Shown: piece after piece, positions 16,852 through 35,759 of the stretch
Numbering within the stretch: the stretch's first letter is position 1
How the letters are laid out: every line of letters begins with the position of its first letter
Source of the DNA: Paludibaculum fermentans
GTDB lineage: Bacteria; Acidobacteriota; Terriglobia; Bryobacterales; Bryobacteraceae
Reading direction: 5' to 3'
Assembly: GCF_015277775.1 (NCBI RefSeq)
Contig: NZ_CP063849.1
Span: forward strand, 7,207,501 to 7,271,500
DNA length: 64,000 nt
Notes under the pieces: generated by a model
What the model was told of the DNA's origin: nothing
The model's input: only the letters and a program-made list of their open reading frames with translations
Database searches by the model: none
Program-made: the position numbers and the translations under genes

Positions 16852-16880
16852 GTGTTGTTCCTTTTTGTATGAACTCGGGC

Positions 16881-17927: not shown

Positions 17928-18725
17928 CTATCGGGCACCCGCCGCGGCTGGCGACGAACGCTTACTATGTCCGGTGGAGCCGTTGCCGGCGCTCCGTGTC
18001 CCTTCCTTCTCAACGGACAGCTCCTGCAAAGCCTGAGCCGGAATCAGTTCCCAATCTCCGCCCTGGTTCCATGGGCCGCGCGCGTTCGGCTCGCCCCGGT
18101 CGCCGGTTCCCGTAGAGGAGTCGAAGTATTGGTTGACGAGGCCGGCCGTCGGGGGGAGGCTCCCGATTGAGAAGCGATCCTTCCCTAGGCTTTCCAGGGC
18201 CGCGGTGAACGCCTTCAAATGCGTTATTTCCCGGGTCATCAGGAACTGCAGCGCGTCGATCGTGCCTGCGTCATCGCAGAAGTGGATCAGCCGCTCGTAG
18301 ACAATCTTGGCTCGCGCCTCCGCTGCAATATTGCTTCGCAGGTCGACGTCCAGTTCCCCTGTGATCTTGAGGTAGTCGGCGGTCCAGGCGTCACCCATCG
18401 AGTTCTGCAACGCCACGCCGCCGCCGCCCGCGATGGCGATCAGCGGATCGGCTTCCGCCGCCGAACGGCTGTTCTTCAGCGGCCGCAAGTGCATGCGCGC
18501 CAGTGAGCCCACAATCTCCAGATGGCTCAGTTCTTCGGTGCCGATATCCATCAGCATGTCCTTGCGTTCAGGATCGTCGCAATTCAACCCTTGAATCGAA
18601 TACTGCATCGCCGCCGCCAGTTCGCCATTGGCCCCGCCAAACTGCTCGAGAAGCATGTTCCCAAAGCGAGGATCCGGTGTGCCGATGTGAACCGTATACA
18701 TCAACTGCTTGACATGGTGATACAT
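17928..18725 (-). CDS. Manganese catalase
   Basis: 265 residues, a typical non-haem di-manganese catalase. The ferritin-like four-helix bundle has its ligands in place: Glu35 (FGGANGELAAAMQY), Glu65 and His68 (GTEELSHLEIVGS), Glu136 probably (NIAAEARAK) and His169 with second-shell Glu166 (MTREITHLKAF). It disproportionates hydrogen peroxide in the cytoplasm. The C-terminal ~50 residues are a loose hydrophilic tail. It is followed in the minus direction by the small peptide and BON genes and preceded by the DUF892 gene (33-bp gap), a combination common in oxidative/desiccation-stress islets. Confidence 0.95.
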   Translation of the reverse strand: MYHHVKQLMYTVHIGTPDPRFGNMLLEQFGGANGELAAAMQYSIQGLNCDDPERKDMLMDIGTEELSHLEIVGSLARMHLRPLKNSRSAAEADPLIAIAGGGGVALQNSMGDAWTADYLKITGELDVDLRSNIAAEARAKIVYERLIHFCDDAGTIDALQFLMTREITHLKAFTAALESLGKDRFSIGSLPPTAGLVNQYFDSSTGTGDRGEPNARGPWNQGGDWELIPAQALQELSVEKEGTRSAGNGSTGHSKRSSPAAAGAR

Positions 18726-18758
18726 ATGGGTTTTTGGCCTGAATGCGATGCAAGCCGT

Positions 18759-19289
18759 CTACTTTCCCGCTTTGGCGGACTTTCTCTGCGTCTTGCTCAT
18801 TGCGGAGCTGGCTTCCTGCATCAGTGGCTTGCTCAGTTCCGTCAGTAGGAAATCGGCGCTCTCCTCTTCACCCAACGTTTGCGTGAGCAGCCTGGCGACT
18901 TGCGTTTCGCCGATCTGCCGGGCTAGGCTGCGGGCCGTCCCATATCCTGAGATCTCGTAGTGTTCCACTCTCTGCGCGGCGGCGATCAACCCGAGGTCGG
19001 CGGCAATCATCGGCCTCTCCTCGCCCTCTTTGATGGTTTCGGCGCCCTCTGTCACCAGCCCCATCATTGCCTTGCAGGGCTTCGGCTCCGGCTTCTCGCC
19101 CAGCAGGTCGAACGCGGCTTTTAGCCGTTCCACCTGACCCTCCGTCTGGTGGAGGTGATTCAGGAAGGTCTCCTTGAGCTTTGGATGATGCGCGGCCTTA
19201 GCCATCTTCGGCAGGGCTGTCAACAACTGGCCCTCCGCATGAAGAAGGTCGCGTAATTCGTCAACGAGCAGGTCTTTCAGTTGGTTCAT
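18759..19289 (-). CDS. YciE/YciF-type ferritin-like protein (DUF892)
   Basis: 176 residues from ATG 19289 (MNQLKDLLVDELRDLLHAEGQLLTALPKMA), the standard DUF892 beginning. The four-helix bundle carries family metal-ligand motifs: ELRDLLHAEGQL, HLHQTEGQVERL, AAAQRVEHYEISGYGTA and LGEEESADFLLTEL. E. coli YciF is a stress-induced dimer with a rubrerythrin-like fold; enzymatic activity is not established. The tail (SKTQRKSAKAGK) is basic. It is directly upstream of the catalase gene, so the two are probably co-transcribed. Confidence 0.92.
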   Translation of the reverse strand: MNQLKDLLVDELRDLLHAEGQLLTALPKMAKAAHHPKLKETFLNHLHQTEGQVERLKAAFDLLGEKPEPKPCKAMMGLVTEGAETIKEGEERPMIAADLGLIAAAQRVEHYEISGYGTARSLARQIGETQVARLLTQTLGEEESADFLLTELSKPLMQEASSAMSKTQRKSAKAGK

Positions 19290-19646
19290 GTGCTTTGATT
19301 CCCTGTCCAAGCTTTCTAAATCTGCGGCTGCCCTGCGCAACTGCGCCCTCCTGGGCAAGGTCGGGCACTTCGCGGACGTCAGGAAAGACTTCCACCAGGC
19401 AACCCGGAAGGCGCGTTGCGGACACTCCCGCCAGCGCGTTCCTGGAGCTGACCCGGGCCTCTGGGCCTGCTCCCTGCCTGCGGCTGGCCTCCGGTGCGAT
19501 GCGGGCCGCGCGGGTTCTGCTTCGGGCTGTTCACGAGACGCACCTCCGGTCACACCGTCTCCTGCGTGTTCCGAAGTACGCCAGGTAAATCGTCCGCGAA
19601 TGAACGGACGGCTCCCATCGCAGACCAGCCCGTGTCGGTAGCGTCC
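19290..19646. other. 357-bp intergenic stretch, nothing recognised
   Basis: It lies between the DUF892 start and the end of the DUF883-like gene and must hold the promoter of the DUF892-catalase unit. No consensus could be picked out with confidence. Confidence 0.5.
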
Positions 19647-21326: not shown

Positions 21327-23339
21327 ATGATCAAGCAGTACTCAGATACACCCACAAATGGCACGACCAGCTCGCGGAACCGTTTGGCCCTGAATCGTCT
21401 TGGGCCGCAAAAGGGTTCCACCACGCCAATCGAGGCGAGGAAGCTCCCGGAGTCACGCGATCAGGCCGATGACCTCTCCCAGAGCCGCCTCAGCGCCAGG
21501 AAACTGGCGGAGGAAAAGGCGCGCGCCAGGACCGTTGCCCGCGCACAGGCCGTGGCGGAGAAACTGTCCACCGCCACAGACCAGGTAGCCAGCGCCATCA
21601 CCGAGGCCACCGGCGCGGTGGAAGAGTTGGAAAAAACGATGCACACCATCGCGGCCGGCGCAGATCAGGCGTCGGCTGCCGCCGAGGAGTCACGCGCCGC
21701 GATCAACCAGATTGAGAAGGCGTCGGACGGTGCGAACGGCCGCGCCGAAGAATCCCTGCGCCGGGTAAACGATTTACAGGGGCTCGTCAGGTCCACGACG
21801 ACGGACCTCGAAGCGCTCATCAAGGGAGTCGGCGAAGCCGCTGACGCCAATATCGATTCCGCCAAAATGATCGGCGAACTCGAACGGCAGTCCGAAGAGA
21901 TCGGCAAAATTGTCCATGCCGTAACCCGGATTGCCGATCAGACCAACCTGCTTGCCCTGAACGCAGCCATCGAAGCGGCCCGCGCTGGCGAACACGGCAA
22001 GGGATTTGCCGTAGTCGCCGATGAAGTGCGAAATCTTGCCGAGATCAGCGAGAAGAGCGCCCGCGGCATCCAGGAAGTTGTCAACGAGATTCAGAACCAG
22101 GTGAAAGTGGTAGCCGGGGACACGGAAGCGGCCGGCAGGAAGGGCCGCGAAGAGGTGGACAAGGCCAAGGTCATCACCCAGGCTCTGCTGGCAATCGCCA
22201 CGGACTTCGAGGAGATTCAGGCAAATTGCGCGGAGATTCAGAAGAACGCCGCGGAGGCCCTCTCCGGCGCCAAGACCTATCTGAAGGGAGCCGAGGAGAT
22301 CGCCGCCGCCGCCGAGGAAGCGACCTCTGCCTGCCAGGAAGCGCAGAAATCGACTCAGGAGCAGTCCAAGGCGTATTCCGAAATGAGCGACGCTGCGCGC
22401 TCGCTGGCCGAGATGGCGGAATTGCTCAAGACGTCGACCAATGCGCAGAAGTCGGCCGAGGAACTGGCCGCGACAGCCGAGGAACTCTCCACCAATGCCG
22501 AAGAGCTAAAAGCGTCGTCTCAACAGATTGCCATCGCCATCGAGCAGATCAGCAAGGCCGCTGGTGCCCAGGCCAAGGCTGCGGAAGCCTCCAACACCTT
22601 GGGCGCTCAAATGCGGCATGCCGCCAAAGGCATGAGCGACCGTGCGGAATCGAGCGTGGAAAGAGCCCTGGCGACCCAAAAACTTCTCGCCACCAACAAG
22701 GTCAACGTGGATGCGCTGATCGTCAATGTGGGCAAGAGCGCCGTGGCCGCCGTCGATTCCGCCAGAAACATCCTGGAACTGGAGGAACGCACCCGTCGCA
22801 TCGACAAGATCGTCGACGCGATTGTGATGGTGACGGTCCAGACCAAGATGCTTGCCGTGAATGGAAACGTCGAAGCGGCGCGCGCCGGAGAATATGGCCG
22901 GGGCTTTTCGGTGGTGGCTGGAGACATCCGGTCGCTCGCCAACGAAAGCAGCGAAAACGCCGATCGCATCAAGGATCTGGTCAAGAACGTACAGACTCAG
23001 ATCACAAAGGTCGCGGGGGATATCGAACTGGCCGGAAGCCGGGGCCGGGCCGAAGTGGAACGCGCGAAGGTTTCTACGGCGAATCTGGATCGCATCGCAA
23101 CGGAATCCAACATCGTCGTGACGGCCATCCGCGAGATCGCGAGAGCCTCCGTGGAGGCTGCCGCCGGGCTGGAACAGGCGGGCAAAGCAAGCCAGCAAAT
23201 CGCGGCCGCCGCTGAGGAAACAGGCCGCGCCTCCACTGAAGCGGCGGGCGCCTCGGAGCAGGGACTGAAGGCCGCGCAGGAGATCGCTCAGGCCATTGAG
23301 GATATCGCTTCCCAGGCCGATGAACTGCAGAACGGGTAA
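21327..23339 (+). CDS. Soluble methyl-accepting chemotaxis protein with two signalling tips
   Basis: 670 residues with AGGAG before the ATG. There is no membrane segment or sensor domain; nearly the whole chain is heptad-patterned coiled coil. A canonical MCP hairpin tip lies at about 204-229 ([18 protein letters not shown] then [17 protein letters not shown]). A second tip exactly 300 residues later (about 504-528) is altered: [18 protein letters not shown] then [18 protein letters not shown]. Flanking segments are also repeated ([17 protein letters not shown] against [17 protein letters not shown]), showing an internal tandem duplication. Like the cytoplasmic receptor FrzCD, it must take its signal from a partner or from the cytoplasm. 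It leads the chemosensory gene cluster. Confidence 0.93.
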
Positions 23340-23372
23340 TCGGTAGCGAGTTCTTGTCGAAGGAGATCCGAA

Positions 23373-25256
23373 ATGCAAAACGACACTCTACCAGCCTCCG
23401 GCGGCCTGAAGGACGAAAGCCAACTGGTCACCTTTCTGCTGAACGATGAAGAGTTTGGCTTCGACATCATGTCGGTCCAGGAAATCATCCGTCCTCCCAA
23501 GCTGGCGAAAGTCCCCCGTACACCTCCCTATGTGGACGGCATCGCCAATCTGCGCGGCGTCGTCCTGCCAGTCATTGATATGCGCACCCGCTTTGGAATG
23601 GAGCGGGCTCCGCAGACCGATCGCACCAGGGTTCTGGTCGTCGATATCAATGGAGTCAAGACCGGTTTACAGGTGGACCGCGTCAAACAGGTCACCAGCG
23701 TATTGCGCAGCGAAATGGAACCGCCCCCCGCGGCGATCCGAGGTACCACTGCGGACTATCTCGAGGGCGTAGTGAAACTGGACAAGGGACAGCGCATCGT
23801 CATGGCCCTCAACGCGGCTCATGTCTGCGAAATCGGCGTGACGGCAACGACGGCTTCGTCGAACAAGCTCGCTGCACGCGAAAAGCTCGCCGGCGCGGGA
23901 TCGACGGGTCCCCTGACAGGCGCCGACGCCAAAGTTCAGAAGGTGGTCACCTTCCGGCTCGCAAAGGAGGAATTCGCCTTTCATATGGAGCATGTCCGGG
24001 AGATCCTGCGCGTGCAGACGCCAAAGCAGGTTCCGGACGTGCCCGGCTACGTGTTGGGCGTGCTGACGGTTCGAGGTCAGATTCTCCCGGTCATCGATCT
24101 GCGCAGGCTGCTTCACCAGCGTCCGCTGGCGGATGAGTTCGCGGATAGCTGCCGGCAATTGCGGGAGGACTATGAGTGCTGGATTGATCGGGCATCGAAA
24201 CTCTTCGCAGGCGGGACGCAATCAAAGCTGGAAGCTTCCGTCACCGAGCAGTTCCGGAAGTGGCAATCTGAGACAAACAGTTCCAGCCAACTCCTGATGG
24301 AGTCCCTGGCTCAGGCCCGTGGGCTGAACGAGAAAGTGATCAAGCAACTCCAGATGCGGGCCAGGCACGAAGAGTGCGGTGATCGCGACGCCGCGGCCGC
24401 CTGCGCCGGCGAGGCGCTCTCGGCAGGCCGTGAGACGCTGGCTGCCCTGCGCCAGTTTGAACAGCAGGTGGCCCAGAACATCCAGGAAGACCAGCGCATC
24501 ATTGTTGTGGATGCCGAAGGACTCGCCTTGGGTCTGGTGGTGGATCACGTTCATGAGGTGCTCAACGTTCCAAAGAACCTGATGGAGCCGCCGCCTCGCG
24601 TTAAGTCGAGCGGCGGCATGGAACTGTCCGGTGTCGCCCGGCTGGATGAAGGCTCCCGGCTGATCATGATGTTGGACGTCGGCAATCTCATGAAAGACCA
24701 AACACTACGCGCCGTCCAGGATTCTTCCCTCCATGCGGATGAAGCGGCGCTGGCCGGGGAGGTCTGTAGCACCGGCGCGGGCTCACAGGACTTGAGTGAA
24801 GTTCAGCTGGTGACCTTCATGCTCGGCCCTGAAGAATATGGCATTCCTATTTCGCAGATCCAGGAGATAGACCGTCTTTCCAGGATCACCAAAGTACCAA
24901 AGGCTGCCGAGTTCATCGAGGGGATCACGAACCTGCGCGGAGAAGTCATCCCCGTGCTGGACACACGGAAGCGCTTCGATCTCGAGGTGCGACCGGCCGA
25001 CGACCGTACGAGGATCATCATCGTCGATCTTGGCGGCGTGAAGACGGGGCTGGTGGTCGACTCCGTGCGCGAAGTCCTGAATCTTGCCAGGAAGGACATC
25101 GCTCTCCCGCCCGATTCGATCGGTTCCGGAATCGATCAGCAGTTCATCTCTGGAATCGGCAAGGTCGATGCCGGCAAGCGAATGATCGTGGTGCTTGACG
25201 TGGAGCGGATTCTCTCCCGGCAGGAGCAGGCGCAGCTCTCCGAGACTGCCAACTAG
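23373..25256 (+). CDS. Triple-CheW-domain coupling protein with helical insertion
   Basis: 627 residues with GGAGAT before the ATG. Three CheW domains lie in tandem: about 16-155 (LVTFLLNDEEFGFDIMSVQEI), 188-440 (VVTFRLAKEEFAFHMEHVREI) and 476-620 (LVTFMLGPEEYGIPISQIQEI), each with an NLRG- or TVRG-type turn. Domain 2 is interrupted by about 125 mainly helical residues (247-374) between its two halves. In layout (YECWIDRASKLFAG, FRKW) this insert resembles a CZB zinc domain, but the ligand His and Cys residues are absent. CheW couples receptors to CheA; three copies in one chain could bridge several receptor or kinase contacts. It sits 33 bp after the double-tip receptor. Confidence 0.93.
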   Translation: MQNDTLPASGGLKDESQLVTFLLNDEEFGFDIMSVQEIIRPPKLAKVPRTPPYVDGIANLRGVVLPVIDMRTRFGMERAPQTDRTRVLVVDINGVKTGLQVDRVKQVTSVLRSEMEPPPAAIRGTTADYLEGVVKLDKGQRIVMALNAAHVCEIGVTATTASSNKLAAREKLAGAGSTGPLTGADAKVQKVVTFRLAKEEFAFHMEHVREILRVQTPKQVPDVPGYVLGVLTVRGQILPVIDLRRLLHQRPLADEFADSCRQLREDYECWIDRASKLFAGGTQSKLEASVTEQFRKWQSETNSSSQLLMESLAQARGLNEKVIKQLQMRARHEECGDRDAAAACAGEALSAGRETLAALRQFEQQVAQNIQEDQRIIVVDAEGLALGLVVDHVHEVLNVPKNLMEPPPRVKSSGGMELSGVARLDEGSRLIMMLDVGNLMKDQTLRAVQDSSLHADEAALAGEVCSTGAGSQDLSEVQLVTFMLGPEEYGIPISQIQEIDRLSRITKVPKAAEFIEGITNLRGEVIPVLDTRKRFDLEVRPADDRTRIIIVDLGGVKTGLVVDSVREVLNLARKDIALPPDSIGSGIDQQFISGIGKVDAGKRMIVVLDVERILSRQEQAQLSETAN

Positions 25257-25267
25257 GCCGGAAGAAA

Positions 25268-25286
25268 GGGCCGGCTTGCCCGGCCC
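25268..25286 (+). other. Small GC hairpin between the cheW-like gene and cheB
   Basis: Arms GGGCCGG (25268-25274) and CCGGCCC (25280-25286) around a 5-base loop lie 12 bases before the cheB start codon. There is no T-run. It might damp readthrough or cheB translation; chance in GC-rich DNA is also possible. Confidence 0.3.
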
Positions 25287-25298
25287 GGTAGCATTCCA

Positions 25299-26363
25299 AT
25301 GAGAAAAACCCGAGTGTTGGTGGCGGATGATTCTGCCCTGATGCGGCAGACCTTCAAACGGATCATCGCCGCTTCAACTGATCTTGAACTGGTGGGGCTC
25401 GCCCGGGACGGCGAGGATGCAATCTCCAAGGCCCGGCAGTTGCGGCCCGATGTCGTCTCGATGGACATCAATATGCCGAAGCTCGATGGGATCACTGCTC
25501 TCCAGATGATCCTCCAGGAGAAGATCTGCCCGGTCGTCATGGTTTCATCCCTCACTCAACTCGGAACTGCGACAACCTTCGAGTGCCTGGAGTTGGGGGC
25601 GTTCGATTTCATCGCCAAGCCGGATGGCACGGTCTCCTCCAACATGGGCCTCGTGGCGGACGAACTGCTATCGAAGCTCAGGGCCGCGGCGTCCCGAGGC
25701 ATCGTGAACCGTCCTCCGCGCAGCCGTGAACGCCGGCTTCCGTCCAGGCCGCCACTCCACGAGGCATTTGCGGGCACTCCACAAACGAGAGCGGTTGCGA
25801 TCGGAATCTCCACCGGCGGGCCGGCGACTCTGCAGGAGGTGCTGCCACAGATCCCGGCGGATGTGCCCGCCAGCATCTTCCTCGTTCAACACATGCCGCC
25901 CTCCTTCATTGCCTCGTTTGCGAAGCGGCTGGACGACCACTGCGCACTCAAGGTGGTGGAAGCGCGTTCGGGGATGCCTGTCGAGCCCGGCATCTGCTAT
26001 GTGGCGCCGGGCGGAATGCATCTGTGTCTGCATCGCAAAATGACCGGTGAGGTGGTCATCCGCACGCCCACCACGCCCACCACGCTGTTCATGCCATCGG
26101 TGGGCGTCATGATGGCGTCGATTCTGAACATTTATGGCTCCGGCACGATCGGCGTCCTGATGACCGGCATCGGCGATGACGGCGCGGACCAGATGGTGGC
26201 CATCCGCCAGGCTGGAGGCCACACCATCGCCGAGAGCGAACAGACCGCCGTGGTCTACGGAATGCCTCGCGAAGCCGTCGAACGCGGTGGAGCATGCGTG
26301 GTTGCTCCCAGCCACCAGGTGGCGGAGGAAATTCTAAAGGCGGTTCGGAGAACAACGGAATGA
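25299..26363 (+). CDS. cheB: Protein-glutamate methylesterase CheB
   Basis: 354 residues. The N-terminal receiver domain has phospho-acceptor Asp56 (VVSMDINMPKLDG) and acidic Asp10/Asp11. After a linker (about 125-160) the methylesterase domain carries the triad Ser171 (AIGISTGGP), His198 (LVQHMPPSF) and Asp294 (MTGIGDDGADQ). CheB demethylates receptor glutamates and so resets receptor sensitivity; phosphorylation by CheA activates it. No strong ribosome site precedes the ATG. The stop overlaps the start of the HEAT-repeat gene (ATGA), pointing to coupled translation. Confidence 0.96.
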   Translation: MRKTRVLVADDSALMRQTFKRIIAASTDLELVGLARDGEDAISKARQLRPDVVSMDINMPKLDGITALQMILQEKICPVVMVSSLTQLGTATTFECLELGAFDFIAKPDGTVSSNMGLVADELLSKLRAAASRGIVNRPPRSRERRLPSRPPLHEAFAGTPQTRAVAIGISTGGPATLQEVLPQIPADVPASIFLVQHMPPSFIASFAKRLDDHCALKVVEARSGMPVEPGICYVAPGGMHLCLHRKMTGEVVIRTPTTPTTLFMPSVGVMMASILNIYGSGTIGVLMTGIGDDGADQMVAIRQAGGHTIAESEQTAVVYGMPREAVERGGACVVAPSHQVAEEILKAVRRTTE

Positions 26364-27439
26364 GCACTCTCAGGGAACACATCGCGAAGTTGGGCAGCTC
26401 CTGTGAAGCAGAACGAATTGATGCGGTGGAGGATATCGGCTATCTGAACACCTCCGGCGGCGCGGCCGTGCTCCTGGATCACCTCTGCCGGGAGCCCTCG
26501 CGGACGGTACGGGCTTCCGTTTTCCAGGCCCTGCTTCGAATCGATGGAGACACGGCCATACAAGGCTGTCTTGGGTTGCTCGAAAGCGAAGATCCCCAAC
26601 TCCGGAATCAGGCCGTGGATGTGCTGCGCCGCAAAGGCCCGAAGGCGATTCCGTTCCTGTCCGCGGCCATGCGGGAGGGCGGCAAGGACATCCGGAAACT
26701 CGTTCTTGATGCCATGAGCGGAACTCAGGTCAGGGGCGCCCGGGAGATCTATGCCGCCGGGCTCTCCGATGAGGATCCGAACGTCGTGATCACCGCGGTG
26801 GAGAATCTTGGACGGATTCGCGCCCAGGAGTTCCGCGGCCCCATCGAGGACCTGCTCCACGCGGCCTCGCATCCCATGCTGCTGGTCGCTTGCGTAGAGG
26901 CGCTGGTCAGCATCGGCCAGCCGGAATCGTTGGCCGCAATCCGGCGCCGGTTTCCGGATCTGACGACGCTGCCGGATCTCTTTGTGCCGGCGTATTTGAA
27001 GGCTATGGCCGCCCATGGGGCTCAAGCTGAGTTTGATGAGGTAGTGGGACTCCTGCAGGCGCGCGGCCGGAACTTGCGCCCCGCAATTCTTGGAGCCCTC
27101 CTTGCCATGTGCCCGCGCTGCCACACGCCGCAGGCGGGCCGCCATCTGCTGCCCATCCTGGGCGCGGTGGTGGAGGATGGGGGTCCTCCGCTGTGCCGTT
27201 ACCAGGCGACCAAAGCAATGGGCTACTGGGCGGGCGGCGATGAAGTTTATGCCTTCCTCCTCCAGTGCCTGGCAAGCCCGGAGCGTCTCGTTCGGCTGGG
27301 GGCCGTTGAGTCTCTTCGTCTGGCGAACCGGCGCGAAGTAGGACTCATTCTTGCTGCGCATGCGCTTGAGGAATCCGACGACGAGGTCCTGCAGGCGCTG
27401 AACTGCAACGAGGAGCATCATGCCAGATATCTCAGTTGA
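26360..27439 (+). CDS. HEAT-repeat protein of the chemosensory operon
   Basis: 359 residues from ATG 26360, which overlaps the cheB stop; its own end overlaps cheR by 20 bases. The chain is a solenoid of about ten ~31-residue helical pairs (AERIDAVEDIGYLNTSGGAAVLLDHL, PQLRNQAVDVLRRKGPKAIPFLSAAM, PNVVITAVENLGRIRAQEFRGPI, RLVRLGAVESLRLANRREVGLIL), characteristic of HEAT/PBS-lyase-type repeats. Such proteins are scaffolds; no enzyme motif is present. Being locked between cheB and cheR suggests it organises the adaptation enzymes or links the array to another target. That is inference. Confidence 0.9.
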   Translation: MSTLREHIAKLGSSCEAERIDAVEDIGYLNTSGGAAVLLDHLCREPSRTVRASVFQALLRIDGDTAIQGCLGLLESEDPQLRNQAVDVLRRKGPKAIPFLSAAMREGGKDIRKLVLDAMSGTQVRGAREIYAAGLSDEDPNVVITAVENLGRIRAQEFRGPIEDLLHAASHPMLLVACVEALVSIGQPESLAAIRRRFPDLTTLPDLFVPAYLKAMAAHGAQAEFDEVVGLLQARGRNLRPAILGALLAMCPRCHTPQAGRHLLPILGAVVEDGGPPLCRYQATKAMGYWAGGDEVYAFLLQCLASPERLVRLGAVESLRLANRREVGLILAAHALEESDDEVLQALNCNEEHHARYLS

Positions 27440-28253
27440 GCAATTCCAGAAGCTCAGCCAGCAGATCTATCAGAAGCTCGGACTGCACTTCGACGACAGG
27501 AAGTTCTACTTCCTGAGAACGCGGGTAGCCAGGCGCATGGCCTCGTTGGGCATCGACGACCCCAAAGACTACCTGTTCATGCTGAGTTACGCCGACCCGG
27601 ACGGTCTCGAGATGCAGGCCCTGGCGAATCTTGTTACTACCAACGAGACGTACATGTTCCGGGAGTATGACCAGTTGCAGGCCTTTGCCAATCACTGCCT
27701 GCCCGAGGTGCTATCGGCCAAGCAGGAGCGCGGCGAAAGGACGCTGCGAATCTGGTCCGCGGGTTGCTCCTCGGGCGAAGAACCGTACACCCTGGCGATG
27801 ATCCTCCAGGAAGTGTTTCCCCAGGCACAGACCTGGGATTGTGAAATCGTCGCCTCCGACATTGATGAGAACATGCTCAGGAGGGTCGAGGCGGCGCGCT
27901 ACGGACCGCGCTCCGTGAACGAGGTCCCGGATCAGTACCGGGAGAAGTACCTTGCCGAGGACGGCGGGGAGTACGTGGTGCGGCGAAGAACCGCCGGCCT
28001 GGTTCGAACCCTGCACCTGAATCTCAGTGACCGGATGGCGATGCGAGCCATGCGAGGGTTTGACTTCATCTTCTGCCGCAACGTCCTGATCTACTTCGAT
28101 GATCTCTCTCGCAAGGCAGTAGTTGATCACTTCTACAACGCCTTGAGGCCGGGAGGATTCATCTTCCTGGGCCACTCCGAATCCGTGGGGCGAGTGACGA
28201 CCGCCTTTACGCTGAAGCGGTTCGAAAACCACCTGGTCTATGTGAAGGAATAG
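27420..28253 (+). CDS. cheR: Chemotaxis methyltransferase CheR
   Basis: 277 residues with GAGGAG before the ATG. An all-helical N-terminal domain (about 1-75; YLFMLSYADPDGLEMQALANLVTTNETYMFRE) is followed by the SAM-binding domain: motif I LRIWSAGCSSGEEPYTLAMIL, an acidic strand-2 end (IVASDIDENML), and FDFIFCRNVLIYFD with a final GGFIFLGHSES. It methylates receptor glutamates with S-adenosylmethionine, opposing CheB. No C-terminal pentapeptide-tether domain is present. It overlaps the HEAT gene by 20 bases and ends 4 bases before the next gene. Confidence 0.96.
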   Translation: MPDISVEQFQKLSQQIYQKLGLHFDDRKFYFLRTRVARRMASLGIDDPKDYLFMLSYADPDGLEMQALANLVTTNETYMFREYDQLQAFANHCLPEVLSAKQERGERTLRIWSAGCSSGEEPYTLAMILQEVFPQAQTWDCEIVASDIDENMLRRVEAARYGPRSVNEVPDQYREKYLAEDGGEYVVRRRTAGLVRTLHLNLSDRMAMRAMRGFDFIFCRNVLIYFDDLSRKAVVDHFYNALRPGGFIFLGHSESVGRVTTAFTLKRFENHLVYVKE

Positions 28254-28257
28254 CTCT

Positions 28258-28635
28258 GTGGATACCAAGCAAACGATCCTCATCGTGGATGACTCTGAAT
28301 TCGTCAGGAACTATCACTCCTACATCCTGGAACAGGCTGAGTTCCGCGTGGTTACGGCGGTGGACGGTAGTGATGGGCTGGAGCAACTGTACACGCATTC
28401 CTGCGATCTGGTGATCACCGACATCAACATGACCAACATGGATGGCTACGAGTTCATCCGGCGCGTGCGCGCCAACGGGAAATACCGGTCGCTGCCCATC
28501 ATCATCGCGTCCACCGAAAGTGATGGCAAAGACAAACTGAAGGGATTTGAAGCAGGGGCCAATCTCTACATTGTCAAACCCTGCGCCCCGGAAGTGATGG
28601 TCGAGAACATCCGCATGATACTGCGCGCCGCCTGA
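28258..28635 (+). CDS. CheY-like single-domain response regulator (first copy)
   Basis: 125 residues from a GTG at 28258, four bases after the cheR stop; GAAGGAATAG overlapping that stop serves as ribosome site. It is a lone receiver: Asp11/Asp12 (LIVDDSEF), phospho-acceptor Asp55 (LVITDINMTNMDGYEF), Thr near 84 (IASTES) and Lys (YIVKPCAPE). No output domain is present. It is likely phosphorylated by the CheA of this cluster and acts by protein contact, or works as a phosphate sink for the second CheY. It shares only moderate identity with the second copy. Confidence 0.93.
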   Translation: MDTKQTILIVDDSEFVRNYHSYILEQAEFRVVTAVDGSDGLEQLYTHSCDLVITDINMTNMDGYEFIRRVRANGKYRSLPIIIASTESDGKDKLKGFEAGANLYIVKPCAPEVMVENIRMILRAA

Positions 28636-28687
28636 GGCATGGACGCGGCGGAGGAAACAGATACAGCCAGGGAAGGTTTCGAACTTG

Positions 28688-28987
28688 ATGCCATTTTCTC
28701 TCTCTCGCCGGCAAAACCGGCAGCTTCTTAAGCTCGAAGGTACGGTTACCATCCGGCACGCGCAGGATCTCGCCGCCAAACTCGGCGAGTCCCCGGACTA
28801 CGGCGCTTCCGTCGAAGTCGATACCAGCAGCCTGGAGGACATCGACACCTGCGTCCTGCAACTGCTGTGTTCACTGCGAAAGACGGCCCCGGCTCTTTCA
28901 TTTGCCCACCCATCCGATGCTTTCGTCCGCGCCGTGGATCGCTGTGGCATGCGGCGGGAGTTCTTCCGGACGAGGGAATCCTTGTGA
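28688..28987 (+). CDS. STAS-domain protein in the chemosensory operon
   Basis: 99 residues from ATG 28688 (a TTG one codon earlier is equally possible; GGGAAGG lies upstream). The chain follows the STAS pattern: a first strand/loop (LLKLEGTVTIRHAQDLAAKL) and the core VEVDTSSLEDIDTCVLQLLCSL. The DID-T position corresponds to the Ser/Thr phosphorylated in anti-anti-sigma factors (here Thr). STAS proteins relay phosphorylation-dependent binding. Its last base pairs overlap the next gene (GTGA), so it is made together with the second CheY. Partner and output are unknown. Confidence 0.85.
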   Translation: MPFSLSRRQNRQLLKLEGTVTIRHAQDLAAKLGESPDYGASVEVDTSSLEDIDTCVLQLLCSLRKTAPALSFAHPSDAFVRAVDRCGMRREFFRTRESL

Positions 28988-29346
28988 AGACGATCTTGAC
29001 GGTAGATGATTCGTCCAGCCTCCGGCAGATGGTGAGCTTCGTGCTACGCAGCAACGGCTATGACGTCGTCGAGGCCGTGGACGGAGTGGATGGGCTGGCT
29101 AAACTCGATGGCCAGGCGGTGGACCTGGTTCTGACCGACATCAATATGCCAAGGATGGACGGAATCGAATTCACACGCCAGCTTCGAGCCATGACGCCCT
29201 ACAAGTTCGTCCCCATCGTCCTGCTGACCACTGAATCGCACCCGGATAAGAAGCAGCAGGGTAAGGCAGCAGGCGCAACAGCCTGGATTGTAAAACCATT
29301 CCAGCCAGACCAGCTTCTGGCGGTGGTAAAGAAGGTCCTGCGCTAG
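28984..29346 (+). CDS. CheY-like single-domain response regulator (second copy)
   Basis: 120 residues from a GTG at 28984 overlapping the STAS stop; GAGGGAATCC precedes it. The motifs are those of true CheY: Asp8/Asp9 (LTVDDSSSLRQMV), phospho-acceptor Asp52 (DLVLTDINMPRMDG), Thr at LLTTES and Lys in WIVKPFQPDQL. It resembles canonical CheY more closely than the first copy and is the better candidate for the diffusible output of the system. It lies 40 bp before cheA. Confidence 0.94.
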   Translation: MKTILTVDDSSSLRQMVSFVLRSNGYDVVEAVDGVDGLAKLDGQAVDLVLTDINMPRMDGIEFTRQLRAMTPYKFVPIVLLTTESHPDKKQQGKAAGATAWIVKPFQPDQLLAVVKKVLR

Positions 29347-29386
29347 GGCCTGGCAGGGAAATGGAAACCGAAAGCGGCAGTTAACG

Positions 29387-32149
29387 ATGTCAATAGACGT
29401 GATGGAACAGATGCGGAGTGCATTCCGGGCAGAGGCTCTCGATTTGCTGATCGAACTCGACTCCGCCCTTCTGGCACTCGAGGAGGTGACGGCTGATTCA
29501 GCTCTCGTACATCGCGTCTTTCGGGCCATCCATACCATCAAGGGCTCGGGGGCAACCGCTGGTTTCACGCGCCTCGCTCGCTTCGCTCACTGCATGGAGG
29601 AGGCCTTCGATCTCGCGCGGGAAGGACGTCTCACCGTCACTCCGGAGTTGATCGATTGCGGACTGAAGGCGTGCGATGTCATTCGCCTGCTCATTGAGCA
29701 GAACTCCGAAGGAGCCGCTATACCCGGAGAGGCGGAAGCGGCCGGCGCGTTCGCGAAACTTCTGCCTGCGTCGTCAAATCCTCCTGCCAGGCAAGGCGAA
29801 GATCAAATGCCGGCGACGCTCACTCGCTCGGCATTCGAGATTACATTCAAGCCGAAACGGGATCTGTTCTATTCCGGAGCCGACCCGGTCACGTTGCTCG
29901 ACGACTTGCGTGAACTCGGACAGGCACACATCACCGCCCATTCCGATCAGGTCCCGCTCCTGCCTTCGCTCGAGCCCGAGCTCTGCTACCTCTGGTGGGA
30001 AATCCTGCTTGTGACAGACCGCGGTCCCTCCGCGATCAGGGACGTATTTGTATTCGCTGAGGACGATTGCGAGCTCCGCATCCGGCTGCTGGACGATCAG
30101 GAATCGGCGGTGTCCCTGCTTGGTTCCGTGCCCGCGGAGGCGTTTGAACTGTTCGTGCTGGAGTGCGAAGACCACCTGGAAGCAATGGAACGGGACGCGC
30201 TCGCCTTGGCCGCTGGTCCGGCCGCAAGGGACGAGTTGGATTCCCTTTTTCGGGGAATCCACAGCATCAAGGGTAACGCGGGCCTGCTTTTGAGCGATGT
30301 CAAGGGCGAGACTCTTACTGCCGGCCATCCCTTGCCGCTATTGCTCCGCGTGGCTCACGGGCTGGAATCGCACCTCGATCCCTACCGGGCAGCGGGCGCC
30401 GTACGGCCCACGGAGCAGACTGTCCAGACCGTGCTCGAGACTTGTGACGCCATCCGCAACCTGTTGGGAAGGCTGAAGCACACCGGCTCGGGCGGTCCGG
30501 CCCCGCTGGAACTGCTCGCGCGTTTGGGCGTTGCTGCGGGAGACGCGCCGGCCGCACAGCCGGCCAACCCCAGGGAAGCCGCTTTTCTGAACACGGCGTC
30601 ACAGTGCGTGGAGTTGATCGACAGTTGCTTCCAGCGCATCGGCAACGGCGGCGAAGCTACCCGGCCTGTTCTCGAAACCTACCTGCGTGGTCTCAAAACC
30701 TTGTCGGCTGCTGTCCAGTACCGGCACTGCCCTGAGCTGGAAGAACCCTTGGCGCAACAACTGCGAATCCTGGATGCCGCGATGAGTGCGGGCTCAGCCC
30801 TGGGCGGAGAAGATCGTTTGGCTCTCGACAGCGCGTTTCGCGCAGCCCGTTGCGCCCTGGATCGAATTTCGGCCGGCGGAGCTGTGAGCGGCAAATCGGA
30901 ACCTGCCTCAGCCGCACCGCTCCCCCCGGGGACTTCGGAGGTTCGCACTGGCGGCTCCGCCTCGCCGTCCACCATTCGGATCGATCAGAACAAACTGGAT
31001 AACCTGATGCGGATCGTCGGCGAACTGCTGGTGGCGCGCGGCGCCTTCCCCCTGCTGGTGCGGAAGCTGAATGACCGCGAGACTGGCACAGGACTGGCGA
31101 AGGATCTCAAGGACGCGGGCTCAAATATCTCGCGCATCGCCGACGAACTCCAGAGTAGTGTCATGTCGATTCGGATGCTGCCGGTCAAAACCGTTTTCCA
31201 GAGATTCCCTCGCCTGGTGCGGGACCTCGCCCGCTCGCTCGGTAAGGAAGTTCAGCTCGTAATCGAAGGCGAGGGCATCGAACTGGACAAGACGATTCTG
31301 GAGCAAATCGGAGACCCGCTCGTTCACGTTATCCGCAATGCGGTGGATCACGGCCTCGAGCCGCCGGAGAAACGTCGTTCCGCCGGAAAAAGCGTGTCCG
31401 GACAACTGGCCTTGCGAGCGCGGCACGAGGCCGGCGGTGTGGTGATTGAGATTGCCGACGATGGGCGTGGGCTCGACGCTGCAGCGCTTAGGAGAAAGGC
31501 CGTCGACAAGGGTCTGCTCGCGCCCGAGACCGTCGCTGGGATGAGCGATGAAGCCGCTTTTCAACTCATCTTCCTGCCGGGCTTGACGACCGCTGCGAAA
31601 GTCACCGATGTCTCCGGCCGCGGAGTCGGCATGGACGTCGTCCGCAGCAATGTCCGCGCTCTGCACGGTGCCATCGAGATCCGTTCGCAGCCCGGCCGCG
31701 GCACCACCTTCCTGATCAAACTGCCCACGAGTCTGATTGTTTCCAAGGGAATCCTGTTGGAGGCGGGAGGGCAGCAGTATGTCCTGCCTTTGAGTAGCAT
31801 TCACGACATGGTCAAACTGCCGTTGGAAGCGGTGCACCTGTACCGCGGGGTGACCTTGGCCCAAGTCAGGGGCCGGGTCTATTCCATCTTCAACCTCGCG
31901 GAGATGCTGGGCCAGGCGCCCGCCCGGCAAACTGAGCTTTCTGTCGCAATTGTGGAAGCAGGCACAGTCCGATACGGTCTGGTTGTCGACAGGTTCATGA
32001 CTGAAGTCGAGGTGCTCGTCAAACCCCTGACCGGCGGCTTGGAGCAATGCAGGGAGTTTCAGGGCGCTGCCATCATGGGCGACGGACGCGTGGTTCTGGT
32101 CCTGAATCCGCTGGAGTGCCATAGTCTGGTCGTCACGGCTTGCACCTAG
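29387..32149 (+). CDS. cheA: Chemotaxis histidine kinase CheA with two HPt domains
   Basis: 920 residues, longer than the usual ~650. HPt1 has phospho-site His49 (FRAIHTIKGSGAT). A P2-like alpha/beta domain lies at about 150-240 (FKPKRDLFYSGADPVTLLDDLRELG). A second HPt has His292 (FRGIHSIKGNAGLL). A further helical region (400-495) resembles an HPt without a histidine motif. Then follow the P3 dimerisation helices (about 528-600), the ATPase with N box HVIRNAVDHGLE (about 647-658), DDGRG (691-695) and GRGVGMDVV, and a C-terminal CheW-like P5 domain (about 780-920). It autophosphorylates and feeds the two CheYs and CheB. No strong ribosome site is seen. Confidence 0.95.
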   Translation: MSIDVMEQMRSAFRAEALDLLIELDSALLALEEVTADSALVHRVFRAIHTIKGSGATAGFTRLARFAHCMEEAFDLAREGRLTVTPELIDCGLKACDVIRLLIEQNSEGAAIPGEAEAAGAFAKLLPASSNPPARQGEDQMPATLTRSAFEITFKPKRDLFYSGADPVTLLDDLRELGQAHITAHSDQVPLLPSLEPELCYLWWEILLVTDRGPSAIRDVFVFAEDDCELRIRLLDDQESAVSLLGSVPAEAFELFVLECEDHLEAMERDALALAAGPAARDELDSLFRGIHSIKGNAGLLLSDVKGETLTAGHPLPLLLRVAHGLESHLDPYRAAGAVRPTEQTVQTVLETCDAIRNLLGRLKHTGSGGPAPLELLARLGVAAGDAPAAQPANPREAAFLNTASQCVELIDSCFQRIGNGGEATRPVLETYLRGLKTLSAAVQYRHCPELEEPLAQQLRILDAAMSAGSALGGEDRLALDSAFRAARCALDRISAGGAVSGKSEPASAAPLPPGTSEVRTGGSASPSTIRIDQNKLDNLMRIVGELLVARGAFPLLVRKLNDRETGTGLAKDLKDAGSNISRIADELQSSVMSIRMLPVKTVFQRFPRLVRDLARSLGKEVQLVIEGEGIELDKTILEQIGDPLVHVIRNAVDHGLEPPEKRRSAGKSVSGQLALRARHEAGGVVIEIADDGRGLDAAALRRKAVDKGLLAPETVAGMSDEAAFQLIFLPGLTTAAKVTDVSGRGVGMDVVRSNVRALHGAIEIRSQPGRGTTFLIKLPTSLIVSKGILLEAGGQQYVLPLSSIHDMVKLPLEAVHLYRGVTLAQVRGRVYSIFNLAEMLGQAPARQTELSVAIVEAGTVRYGLVVDRFMTEVEVLVKPLTGGLEQCREFQGAAIMGDGRVVLVLNPLECHSLVVTACT

Positions 32150-33065: not shown

Positions 33066-35759
33066 ATGAGCTGGCTAACTCGATTCAGGAACGCTCTGCG
33101 GCCGGAACCTCTCGAAACCGAGCTGGAAGACGAATTTCAGGAACACCTCGAGCAGCGCGCCAAACGACTGGAGACAAAAGGTTTGTCGCCCGAGGAGGCC
33201 CGCCGCGAGGCCGCCCTCCGCTTCGGCAACTCCACCCTCATCCGGGAACGCAGCCGAGACATCCGACTCTGGCTGGGCCTCGAAACCGGCCTCCAGGACC
33301 TCCGCTACGGCTGGCGCGCCCTCCGCCGCAACCCGGTCTTCGCCATCACCGCCATCCTCTCCCTCAGCCTCGCCATTGGCGCCAACACAGCCATCTACTC
33401 CGTCGTCGACGCCGCCATCCTGCGCAAACTGCCTGTCCCGGACCCGGACAGTCTGATCTACCTGGCCACTCCGCCCATCCAGCAACCCGGCTCCGAGACC
33501 AGCGACGAGAACACCTCTTTCAACTACCCTGTATTCAATAGCTTTCGGGAGGCGGCTGGCGATTCCGCCCGGTTGGCCGGCGTCGGCTTTCCCGGCCGGG
33601 CCGAAATCAGCGATTCCGCCCCAGGGGCACCCATCGAGAAGGTCACCCGCGCCTATGTTTCCGGAGAGTTCTTCCAGGTATTCGGCGTGACCCCGGCCCT
33701 GGGGCGCCTGTTCACCGCCGCCGAAGACAAGGTCCCCGGTGGCCACCCCGTCATGGTCCTCAGCTACGACTTCTGGCAGCGCCGCTTCCATGGCGACCCT
33801 GGTGTTATCAACCGCACACTGCTCCACGACAAGACTCTGTACACGATCGTCGGGGTGGCGCGAGAGGGCTTCTTCGGCAATGAGCCCAGCCGCTTCGTCG
33901 ACATTTGGGTGCCCACGATGATGTATCAGAAGGAGGCCTTCACCAACGATCGCTGGCAATGGATGCGCATTACGGGGCGGCTCGGCCCCGGCACGACGCG
34001 CGAGCAGTTGGCCGCCCGCTTCCAACCCGTGCTCAGCCAGTCCAACGAGAACAGGCTGAAGCGTATGACGACGGTGCCTGACGTTGTCCGGAAACAGATT
34101 CTGGAGATGAAGATCTTCGTCCAATCCGGTGCCCGCGGCGTATCGACCTTCCGACGGACCTTTGCCCGGCCGCTCTGGGTTGTGCTCTGTGTCGCTGCCG
34201 CCATCCTGCTCATCGCCTGTGCGAATGTCGCCAGCTTGCTCCTGGCCCGGGCCTCGGCCCGCGCTGCCGAGATGGCGATGCGCATCTCTCTCGGTGCGGC
34301 GCGCTTGCGTCTGGTCCGCCAATTGTTGACGGAGAGCCTCATGCTGGCCGGTCTGGCCGGAGTAGCCGGCTGGCTCATCGCCCGATTGGCGGCTCCCGCG
34401 GTCGTCGCGATGCTCGCTACCCCTGGCGACCCCTACCGGTTTGCGCTCGAAATGGACTCTCGTGTCCTCTTGTTCTGTGCGCTCATCTCCGCCCTGGCCA
34501 CCCTGCTCTTTGGCATGCTGCCCGCCTGGCAAGCCTCGGGGACTCAGCCCATGCAGGTGCTGCGCGGCGCGGCCAGCCATGGCGGACGCCTCCGCCTGGG
34601 CCGCCTCTTTGTCAGTGTTCAGGTCGCCTTTGCCTTCTGCCTCGTCATGGCCGGAGCCTGTTTCCTATTCAGCCTAAGAAACTTGCGGGCTGTCGACGCC
34701 GGGTTCGACCCGCACCAGTTGGCCCTCTTCTCCATCAGCAACGAGGTGCCCGCCCAGGAGAAGGCCCCAAAGTCTAATTTGATGATCCAGATGCGAGACC
34801 GCATGGCGGCGCTCTCCGGAGTACAGGCCGCGGCCGTCGCCCCCTGGGTAGTTCTGGAAGGGAGCACCTGGACGGACCAGATCTTTCTGCCCGGCAAATC
34901 GCCCAGTGACCGCGAAGAGATCTTTTACCCGGTGTCGTCCGGCTACATCAACACGATGCGGATGCGCATGTTGGCGGGCCGCGACTTCACGCCGCGCGAG
35001 GCGAACAACGATCCGGTCGTCGCCACCGTGGTCAACATGGCCTTCGTGCGCAGGTACTTCAATTCAGAAGACCCGGAGGCCGCACTGGACAAATCATTTC
35101 AACGCTCCAGCCAGCCCTCGATGGTGACTCACCGTATCGTCGGAGTCGTCAGCGACTCACATTACTCCAGCTTGCGGAAAGCGCCTGTCCCCATCGTCTA
35201 CATGCCGGCGGAGGGCAGCAGTTACTACACCCTGCATGTCCGCTCCAATCTGGACCTGCCTTCGCTAACCAGGCTCGTCGAAAGAGAGGCCGCGGCCGTC
35301 GGCTCAGGCACCCGTCTGCGCGAGGTCACGACGCTCGACACCCTCGTCGGCAACACGCTTCTGCGCGAGCGGCTGCTGGCTGTCATCGGTGGAACCTTCG
35401 CCCTGTTGGGCCTGGTTCTGGCGGCTATCGGCCTGTTCGGCCTGTTGAACTACTCCGTCGCCCGCCGGACCCGCGAAATCGGCATCCGTTCCGCCCTCGG
35501 TGCGCAGCGCGGGGAGATTGTGATGTTGGTGGGCAAGGACTTAGCCGGTATGGTAGGGGGCGGATTGCTCACTGGCCTGGTGGCCTCGCTCGGCCTCATG
35601 ACTCTCGTCCGATCGCTGCTCTTCGGCATACGGACGGTTGATCCGCTCGTCATCGGCTCCGCCACGGCAGTCTTCTCCCTGGTCGCCCTGATGGCCGGAG
35701 CCTTCCCCGCCGGGCGGGCCGCCGCCGTCGATCCGGTCGTGGCCCTCCGCGGCGAGTAG
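33066..35759 (+). CDS. ADOP-type MacB/FtsX-like permease (pair 2)
   Basis: 897 residues with AAGGAGGTCCC before the ATG. The helical N-terminal domain (ETELEDEFQEHLEQRAKRLETKG, SPEEARREAALRFGN) is followed by the first membrane helix (ITAILSLSLAIGANTAIYSVV), a MacB-type periplasmic domain, an FtsX block (ACANVASLLLARASARAAEMAMRISLGAARLRLVRQLLTES region), a second periplasmic domain and the final FtsX block ending in DPVVALRGE. No ATPase is encoded nearby. It is paralogous to the other two permeases. Its stop is three bases from the convergent porin stop, leaving no room for a separate terminator. Confidence 0.92.
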   Translation: MSWLTRFRNALRPEPLETELEDEFQEHLEQRAKRLETKGLSPEEARREAALRFGNSTLIRERSRDIRLWLGLETGLQDLRYGWRALRRNPVFAITAILSLSLAIGANTAIYSVVDAAILRKLPVPDPDSLIYLATPPIQQPGSETSDENTSFNYPVFNSFREAAGDSARLAGVGFPGRAEISDSAPGAPIEKVTRAYVSGEFFQVFGVTPALGRLFTAAEDKVPGGHPVMVLSYDFWQRRFHGDPGVINRTLLHDKTLYTIVGVAREGFFGNEPSRFVDIWVPTMMYQKEAFTNDRWQWMRITGRLGPGTTREQLAARFQPVLSQSNENRLKRMTTVPDVVRKQILEMKIFVQSGARGVSTFRRTFARPLWVVLCVAAAILLIACANVASLLLARASARAAEMAMRISLGAARLRLVRQLLTESLMLAGLAGVAGWLIARLAAPAVVAMLATPGDPYRFALEMDSRVLLFCALISALATLLFGMLPAWQASGTQPMQVLRGAASHGGRLRLGRLFVSVQVAFAFCLVMAGACFLFSLRNLRAVDAGFDPHQLALFSISNEVPAQEKAPKSNLMIQMRDRMAALSGVQAAAVAPWVVLEGSTWTDQIFLPGKSPSDREEIFYPVSSGYINTMRMRMLAGRDFTPREANNDPVVATVVNMAFVRRYFNSEDPEAALDKSFQRSSQPSMVTHRIVGVVSDSHYSSLRKAPVPIVYMPAEGSSYYTLHVRSNLDLPSLTRLVEREAAAVGSGTRLREVTTLDTLVGNTLLRERLLAVIGGTFALLGLVLAAIGLFGLLNYSVARRTREIGIRSALGAQRGEIVMLVGKDLAGMVGGGLLTGLVASLGLMTLVRSLLFGIRTVDPLVIGSATAVFSLVALMAGAFPAGRAAAVDPVVALRGE

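What the first reader, a model, noticed from the sequence alone, without database searches (positions are those of the whole stretch)
21327..32149. Nine-gene chemosensory system built only from soluble parts
Seen: MCP, triple CheW, CheB, HEAT protein, CheR, CheY, STAS, CheY and CheA in one strand with overlaps or gaps of at most 50 bp. No membrane receptor, cheC, cheD or cheZ. Known: flagellar systems usually include membrane receptors, while Frz-like or 'alternative function' systems may use soluble ones. Inference: this may be a self-contained cytoplasmic signalling array whose input and output differ from classical swimming control. It is the best candidate here for an undescribed system.
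Basis: partly seen in the sequence, partly recalled or inferred. Interest (0 to 1): 0.75.

Follow-up and report, generated by a model that had tools for sequence, protein, structure and literature searches.

The report
F9-class cytoplasmic chemosensory array operon
These nine genes encode a known but poorly understood kind of free-floating chemical-sensing array (the F9 class, imaged in the cholera bacterium), here in an acidobacterium and with some lineage-specific changes, so it is a variant of something known rather than an undescribed system.

Summary
The nine genes at 21327-32149 are real, intact and on one strand. They form a full F9-class chemosensory cluster, not an undescribed system. 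The MCP is a DosM (two tandem signalling domains) and the triple CheW is CheW3, the two published F9 signatures (PMC9321776). The Vibrio F9 array is membrane-free and double-layered (PMC7534058). The CheA groups with CheW3-linked gammaproteobacterial CheAs (98/98), apart from this genome's five other CheAs and E. coli CheA. Eight named acidobacterial contigs carry all nine genes in the same order.

Seen here: DosM tips exactly 300 residues apart in 16 of 16 distinct sequences where both were found; a four-helix insertion in the middle CheW, absent from gammaproteobacteria; two Hpt motifs in CheA; HEAT between CheB and CheR (or directly before CheR) in every F9 locus covering that stretch; a STAS-CheY pair that gammaproteobacteria also have. 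In 9 of 14 acidobacterial loci a soluble MCP-like protein with a CheZ-like D-x-x-x-Q motif sits in or beside the cluster. The window has none, but this genome has one in another che cluster.

Best mechanism: DosM-stapled cytoplasmic array, adapted by CheR/CheB, signalling through two CheYs, probably to HEAT. Output unproven.

The parts
21327..23339 (+). DosM-type soluble chemoreceptor, 670 aa, two tandem MCP signalling domains, no sensory domain recognised
21915..22037 (+). DosM tip 1, canonical (residues 197-237, Glu216)
22815..22937 (+). DosM tip 2, divergent (residues 497-537, Glu516), 300 residues from tip 1 and 155 from the C-terminus
   Evidence: gap-free alignment
23373..25256 (+). CheW3, triple CheW adaptor, 627 aa
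24126..24491 (+). Four-helix insertion in the middle CheW domain (residues 252-373)
   Evidence: AlphaFold2 model; present in 14 of 15 aligned rows, absent from L058; absent from the gammaproteobacterial matches
25299..26363 (+). CheB methylesterase with receiver domain, 354 aa
26360..27439 (+). HEAT-repeat protein, 359 aa
27420..28253 (+). CheR methyltransferase, 277 aa
28258..28635 (+). First single-domain CheY, 125 aa, GTG start
28688..28987 (+). STAS-domain protein, 99 aa
28984..29346 (+). Second single-domain CheY, 120 aa, GTG start
29387..32149 (+). CheA, 920 aa, two Hpt domains (His49 and His292), dimer, HATPase and CheW-like domains

Best explanation
The locus is a complete F9-class chemosensory operon. 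DosM is a rod of fixed length with a signalling tip at each end that staples two opposed CheA/CheW3 baseplates into a flat, membrane-free array (tandem domains and fixed spacing shown here; the array is inferred from the imaged Vibrio one). DosM has no recognised sensory domain, so the signal must enter through a soluble partner receptor encoded elsewhere in the genome or through the four-helix module inserted in the middle CheW (inferred). CheA, with two Hpt domains, phosphorylates the two CheY proteins, and CheR and CheB adapt the array (inferred from intact family domains). The HEAT protein, constant beside CheR, is most likely the target or scaffold of CheY-P, as the HEAT protein Cpc7 interacts with CheY7 in Myxococcus (inferred by analogy). 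STAS and the second CheY act as a pair (inferred from their constant adjacency). The output is probably stress- or metabolism-dependent tuning, not primary steering. I hold the F9 identity at about 0.95, HEAT as CheY partner at about 0.35.
For: Both F9 signatures are present: DosM with two signalling domains and CheW3, as defined in PMC9321776 section 8. CheA joins six CheW3-linked gammaproteobacterial CheAs at 98/98, apart from this genome's five other CheAs and E. coli CheA. Tip spacing of exactly 300 residues in 16 of 16 distinct sequences in which both tips matched the pattern (18 distinct examined). An 11-row alignment from Acidobacteriota, Aminicenantes and Gammaproteobacteria at 38-87% identity has no gap from window residue 63 to 668. 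HEAT in 17 of 17 named CheW3 loci and 6 of 6 further gammaproteobacterial loci covering that stretch. STAS-like protein in 6 of 6 gammaproteobacterial loci that reach beyond CheA, related to the acidobacterial STAS by profile comparison (E 3.8e-6, probability 87%). HEAT precedents: Cpc7-CheY7 (PMC11514114, passage) and Halobacterium OE2401F, whose deletion blocks flagellar switching (PMC2666748, passages). Vibrio F9 is purely cytoplasmic, so far seen only in starvation or late stationary phase, clusters at low oxygen, and its cheA deletion has no detected phenotype under standard conditions (PMC7534058, passages).
Against: Array formation and output rest on homology; I found no experimental study of an acidobacterial F9 protein. 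The gammaproteobacterial reference CheAs were called F9 here by linkage to CheW3, not by the published class profiles. 300 helical residues span about 44-45 nm, against 35 nm between baseplates in Vibrio (PMC3964821, passages); a straight rod does not explain that. In Vibrio at least one other receptor shares the array, and none is encoded beside this cluster. HEAT as CheY partner is an analogy: OE2401F was shown to bind CheD and OE2402F, not CheY itself.
Confidence: 0.8

Rival explanations
1. It is an accessory array for swimming: it shares receptors, CheY or phosphatase with the genome's other chemosensory clusters and biases the flagellar motor directly.
For: This genome has two FliM matches, and 13 of 14 other F9-carrying genomes searched have FliM. 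A CheY 62% identical to the second CheY sits in another che cluster at 5.19 Mb, beside a soluble MCP-like protein homologous to the one encoded with F9 in relatives. PMC9321776 reports a complete flagellar gene set in 97% of F9 species.
Against: FliM is common in these relatives anyway (34 of 58 without F9 have it; Fisher p 0.27). Vibrio F9 cheA deletion shows no detectable phenotype under standard conditions (PMC7534058). None of the neighbouring frames scanned with Pfam is flagellar (9 frames).
Confidence: 0.25
2. It is a Frz-like or alternative-function (ACF) system controlling development, pili or gene expression.
For: Soluble receptor; STAS and HEAT partners suit a non-motor output; a Myxococcus HEAT protein (Cpc7) with its CheY7 regulates development (PMC11514114, passage).
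Against: The signature proteins and the CheA clade are those of F9. No ACF-labelled or Frz reference was in the tree, so ACF placement itself was not tested. A non-motor output inside class F9 remains possible and is not excluded.
Confidence: 0.1
3. It is a decaying remnant without function.
For: Patchy distribution: full-length CheW3 in 3 of 61 relatives; no MCP-like partner gene beside this copy, unlike 9 of 14 acidobacterial loci.
Against: All nine frames are open and match their families over nearly the whole domain; CheW3 is 78-80% identical to that of most Bryobacterales loci.
Confidence: 0.03

Closest known systems
Vibrio cholerae chemotaxis cluster I, F9 class (DosM VC1403, CheW3 VC1402, CheA VC1397)
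   Same: Double-signalling-domain soluble receptor, concatenated triple CheW, CheA, CheB, CheR and two CheY (PMC7534058 and PMC11940527, passages).
   Different: Compared through papers only; no Vibrio sequence was fetched. Against gammaproteobacterial stand-ins (L103-L107, L109, L110): here CheW3 has a four-helix insertion, CheA has two Hpt motifs, HEAT is longer (359 against about 220 aa), STAS-CheY precedes CheA instead of following it, and no MCP ends the cluster.
F9 clusters of other Acidobacteriota (L041, L042, L044, L045, L047, L048, L050, L053)
   Same: Same nine genes in the same order; CheW3 identity 70-80% for the seven of these eight aligned.
   Different: Flanking genes differ. 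L041, L044, L045, L047 and L048 add a soluble MCP-like gene after CheA that the window lacks.
Myxococcus Che7 system (HEAT protein Cpc7 with CheY7)
   Same: A HEAT-repeat protein works with a single-domain CheY of a chemosensory system (PMC11514114, passage).
   Different: Known here only from that passage; Che7 was not compared by sequence. No claim of membership.
Halobacterium OE2401F (HEAT_PBS protein of the haloarchaeal che region)
   Same: HEAT-type protein encoded at a che region and needed to couple Che output to its target (PMC2666748, passages).
   Different: Archaeal, binds CheD and OE2402F; orthology not tested.

Membership tests
F9 chemosensory class | Chemoreceptor DosM with two signalling domains in tandem | tested here: met
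   Two MCPsignal matches in one frame; two tips 300 residues apart
F9 chemosensory class | Adaptor CheW3 with three concatenated CheW domains | tested here: met
F9 chemosensory class | CheA in the F9 clade | tested here: met
   Split of 22 CheW3-linked rows from 13 others at 98/98; references labelled by CheW3 linkage, not by published profiles; the Aminicenantes row is a long branch
F9 chemosensory class | Receptor of the 44-heptad (44H) type | tested here: inconclusive
   155 residues from tip 2 to the C-terminus is about 22 heptads per arm, as 44H needs; the class profiles were not available
F9 chemosensory class | Receptor without membrane or sensory domain | tested here: met
   No 19-residue window above 1.32 in DosM; only MCPsignal found by Pfam
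F9 chemosensory class | Purely cytoplasmic double-layered array | not testable with these tools
   Needs cryo-electron tomography
F9 chemosensory class | Sporadic distribution, usually beside other chemosensory classes and flagellar genes | tested here: met
   3 of 61 relatives, 2 of 297 in the phylum sample; five other CheAs and FliM in this genome
Frz-like / ACF chemosensory class | CheA in the ACF clade | not tested
   No ACF-labelled reference in the tree
Flagellar class of E. coli (F7) | CheA groups with E. coli CheA | tested here: not met
CZB zinc-binding domain (for the CheW3 insertion) | Match to the CZB Pfam model | tested here: not met
   No CZB among Pfam families up to E 10 in 13 members (the filters drop many weak matches); none recognised in the 50 of 506 Foldseek rows shown
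CheZ phosphatase (for the MCP-like protein of relatives) | D-x-x-x-Q catalytic pair with CheZ homology | tested here: inconclusive
   Motif in 10 of 10 aligned members. Pfam CheZ hits only below cut-off, in 3 of 10. Profile-profile probability 2.9%, E 0.016, motif in register. Single E. coli CheZ against the family: no match. A reversed control outscored 4 of 10 forward sequences
CheR-docking pentapeptide (for the MCP-like protein of relatives) | C-terminal pentapeptide with W at 2 and F at 5 | tested here: inconclusive
   F at 5 in all members found, but V, I or L at 2 (consensus in PMC7390727, passages)

The most novel reading that the evidence does not exclude
Acidobacteriota run an F9 array of a new layout. 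DosM is only a staple of fixed length; the adaptor CheW3 itself carries a four-helix sensory module in the baseplate; a soluble MCP-like protein that combines a CheZ-like phosphatase helix (Q-x-[QH]-D-x-x-R-Q) with a CheR-docking-like tail ([VIL]-[ED]-[FL]-F) is both partner receptor and phosphate sink; and HEAT is the target of CheY-P. In this genome the partner would be the copy at 5.19 Mb, which would couple two chemosensory systems.
Probability: 0.18. Interest if true: 0.62.

Novelty: new variant of a known kind. Interest (0 to 1): 0.4.

Why it matters
The role of F9 arrays is reported as unknown (PMC7534058, PMC9321776). This locus and its relatives give a parts list from outside Proteobacteria and point to HEAT and a STAS-CheY pair as constant members. 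The three F9 papers searched do not contain the word HEAT in their main text, and the two searched for STAS do not contain it. The invariant 300-residue DosM spacing is a simple, testable ruler for the distance between the two baseplates. The fixed place of HEAT offers a concrete candidate for the missing output.

Tried and rejected
(1) An undescribed class: rejected by the F9 signatures and the CheA clade. (2) The CheW3 insertion as a CZB zinc domain: suggested by the four helices, not supported by Pfam nor by the 50 Foldseek rows shown, whose hits are CheW/CheA structures and then weak, unrelated or designed helical bundles. (3) The MCP-like protein as an F9-only component: rejected. It also occurs in 3 of 58 relatives without full-length CheW3 (G006, G012, G036), in each within 6 kb of a CheW match. 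All 3 F9 genomes of the 61 have a match, but only G023 has it in the F9 cluster; in G022 it is a partial match on another contig, and in the own genome it is in another cluster. Fisher p 5.6e-4 is not corrected for kinship. (4) CheZ homology by single sequence: E. coli CheZ against the family gave nothing. With a five-sequence CheZ profile the motif aligned in register in the six members L037, L041, L045-L048; L052 aligned elsewhere, and the alignments of the other three were cut from the output. Reversed sequences reached 3.9 bits, more than 4 of the 10 forward scores. (5) A conserved promoter upstream of DosM: an alignment of 7 upstream regions showed no conserved block. (6) A conserved neighbourhood: the flanking genes of the window are shared with none of the 13 loci compared. 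(7) F9-flagella association within relatives: not significant. (8) AlphaFold model of the MCP-like protein: all helical, with weak matches of which the first two and several others are chemoreceptors; not decisive.

Duplicates removed before counting: L036 and L050 are one contig; so are L037, L044 and L134; L038 and L055; L058 and L103. L085 has only DosM and the start of CheW3 at a contig end and is not among the 17. L108 holds only DosM and CheW3. L055 and L058 end before the place where STAS stands in gammaproteobacteria, so absence there is not claimed. L107 has no DosM in the fetched stretch. My overlap filter hid genes of L110; corrected.

Full report
OBSERVATION. The nine genes are present, open and co-directional. 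With corrected starts (HEAT 26360, STAS 28688, second CheY 28984) the gaps run from -20 to 52 bp. No membrane helix is evident in any of the nine by a hydropathy scan.

IDENTITY. PMC9321776 (section 8 read in full) defines the F9 class by DosM, with double signalling domains in tandem, and CheW3, with concatenated triple CheW domains; it reports full F9 clusters in 64 of 2781 species, sporadically. The Vibrio cholerae F9 cluster forms purely cytoplasmic double-layered arrays, with CheA and triple CheW in two baseplates and DosM spanning between them; its role is unknown (PMC7534058, passages; PMC3964821, passages). The window has both signatures. In a maximum-likelihood tree of 35 CheA cores, 22 rows split off at 98/98: the window, the CheW3-linked acidobacterial CheAs, the Aminicenantes one (a long branch, position uncertain) and six CheW3-linked gammaproteobacterial CheAs. 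The five other CheAs of this genome, E. coli CheA and seven CheAs from non-CheW3 loci fall outside. The gammaproteobacterial set was labelled F9 by linkage to CheW3, not by published profiles.

DISTRIBUTION AND ORDER. Full-length CheW3 is in 3 of 61 relatives, own included, in 2 of 297 genomes sampled over the phylum, own included, and in 9 of 321 sampled from the class of the Crenothrix genome, centre included. A scan of named genomes gave 45 loci, 17 of which (L041-L056, L058) carry a CheW3 match over most of its length. Of the 17, 8 have all nine genes in the window's order (L041, L042, L044, L045, L047, L048, L050, L053). Three agree as far as the contig runs (L043, L046, L049). L051 has CheB displaced. 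L052 and L054, and L056 as far as it runs, have an extra gene between the first CheY and STAS. L055 and L058 end early. HEAT is in 17 of 17, between CheB and CheR except in L051, where CheB has moved and HEAT still precedes CheR. The six further gammaproteobacterial loci covering that stretch (L104, L105, L106, L107, L109, L110) have it too. In gammaproteobacteria the order is CheY-CheA-(small protein)-CheY. The small protein, missed by Pfam in three examples, is a STAS relative (profile-profile E 3.8e-6, probability 87%; one also matches the acidobacterial STAS profile at E 8.7e-4). It is in 6 of 6 loci that reach it; these are the six from which its profile was built.

ANATOMY. DosM: the conserved glutamates of the two tips are exactly 300 residues apart in 16 of 16 distinct sequences in which both tips matched; in two more (L108, L109) only tip 2 matched. 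All 19 rows (18 distinct) have 155 residues from tip 2 to the C-terminus. An 11-row alignment has no gap from window residue 63 to 668. Tip 1 is canonical and tip 2 differs from it in every row. Conserved positions also lie near the midpoint (residues 367-378) and at the start of the first and the end of the last helix, which would meet there (inference). A straight helix of 300 residues is 44-45 nm, longer than the 35 nm seen in Vibrio. CheW3: AlphaFold2 (mean pLDDT 75.7) gives three CheW folds and four mostly confident helices at 252-373. The insertion is in 14 of 15 aligned rows, Acidobacteriota and Aminicenantes, and not in Crenothrix. None of the matches listed for the nine gammaproteobacterial genomes covers its model positions. 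Foldseek finds CheW and generic helical bundles. CheA: two Hpt histidine motifs in 10 of 16 acidobacterial and Aminicenantes F9 CheAs, window included; one in each of six gammaproteobacterial F9 CheAs and in each of the five other own CheAs.

PARTNER PROTEIN. In L041, L044, L045, L046, L047 and L048, CheA is followed by an MCP-like protein of about 590-690 aa. In L052, L054 and L056 a protein of similar size with the same motif and tail, but only weak similarity (BLASTP E 8e-4 for L052 against L041), lies between the first CheY and STAS. That makes 9 of 14 acidobacterial loci, window included, where the place can be read; L042, L049, L050, L053 and the window have other genes there, and L043 and L051 are cut. 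Hydropathy gives no clear membrane helix in the ten members examined (highest 1.74 in L037, the others at most 1.46). All ten carry Q-x-[QH]-D-x-x-R-Q-x-x-E and end in [VI]-E-[FL]-F or, in L047, V-D-F-F. So do MCP-like proteins at the end of the gammaproteobacterial F9 clusters L104, L107 and L110, two of which (L104, L110) have a hydrophobic stretch. D-x-x-x-Q is the catalytic spacing of CheZ (recalled; E. coli CheZ sequence). Weak CheZ matches put it in register, with the counter-results listed under tried and rejected. The tail resembles CheR-docking pentapeptides (W and F at positions 2 and 5, PMC7390727, passages; E-[WV]-E-x-F in Vibrio System III, PMC11940527, passages), but position 2 is aliphatic here. 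This genome has a homologue at 5,194,095-5,195,873 (26% identity to that of L041, E 2e-39) in another che cluster, next to a CheY 62% identical to the window's second CheY. The family also occurs in relatives without F9 (3 of 58), so it is not F9-specific.

INPUT. The genome has 13 MCP genes (14 matches, two of them in DosM). Besides DosM only two lack predicted membrane helices by hydropathy: a PAS-HAMP receptor at 5,044,340-5,046,436 and the MCP-like protein at 5.19 Mb. They are the candidate partners if the Vibrio rule holds, that DosM shares the array with another cytoplasmic receptor.

MECHANISM. Shown: parts, order, family membership, fixed rod length. Inferred: double-layered array; signal entry by a partner receptor or the CheW3 insertion; adaptation by CheR/CheB; phosphotransfer to two CheYs; HEAT as CheY-P target or scaffold, by analogy with Cpc7-CheY7 (PMC11514114, passage) and with Halobacterium OE2401F, a HEAT_PBS protein needed for flagellar switching that was found to bind CheD and OE2402F (PMC2666748, passages). 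Stress-type genes lie upstream, but they are not shared by the flanks of the other F9 loci compared and carry little weight.

LITERATURE LIMITS. The DosM paper (PMC5027440) is not held. The original classification paper and the supplementary tables of PMC9321776 were not read. The word HEAT scored 0 in the main text of three F9 papers and STAS 0 in two. The listings of searches showed no F9 paper with 'HEAT repeat' or describing a CheW3 insertion. I therefore do not claim that these are unpublished, only that I did not find them.

VERDICT. A full F9 cluster with lineage-specific modifications: a new variant of a known kind.

Noticed in passing
window 16312-19553, - strand: Stress-type genes upstream of the cluster: YflT-like (16312-16851), BON domain (16881-17390), Mn-catalase (17928-18725), DUF892 (18759-19553). 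Not shared with the flanks of the other F9 loci compared.
   Followed up: partly
window 33066-35759, + strand: Large MacB/FtsX-type permease about 0.9 kb downstream of CheA.
   Followed up: no
own genome G000:C1 5,193,653-5,195,873 (L119): MCP-like protein with a CheZ-like D-x-x-x-Q motif and a C-terminal D-I-E-F-F tail, next to a CheY 62% identical to the second F9 CheY, at the end of another che cluster.
   Followed up: partly
L109 1243-2034 and L110 near its low end: ParA-like ATPase frames (P-loop seen by eye, no family search) near the STAS-CheY end of two gammaproteobacterial F9 loci; ParA-type positioning of cytoplasmic arrays is known in Rhodobacter (recalled).
   Followed up: no
L042 18863-21301 and L049 11847-14051: Instead of the MCP-like gene, CheA is followed by a six-PAS protein (L042) or a PAS histidine kinase (L049), possible alternative inputs.
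   Followed up: no
L084 10431-12422 (Nitrospirae): A HEAT-like frame between a CheW and a CheR in a chemosensory cluster without CheW3.
   Followed up: no
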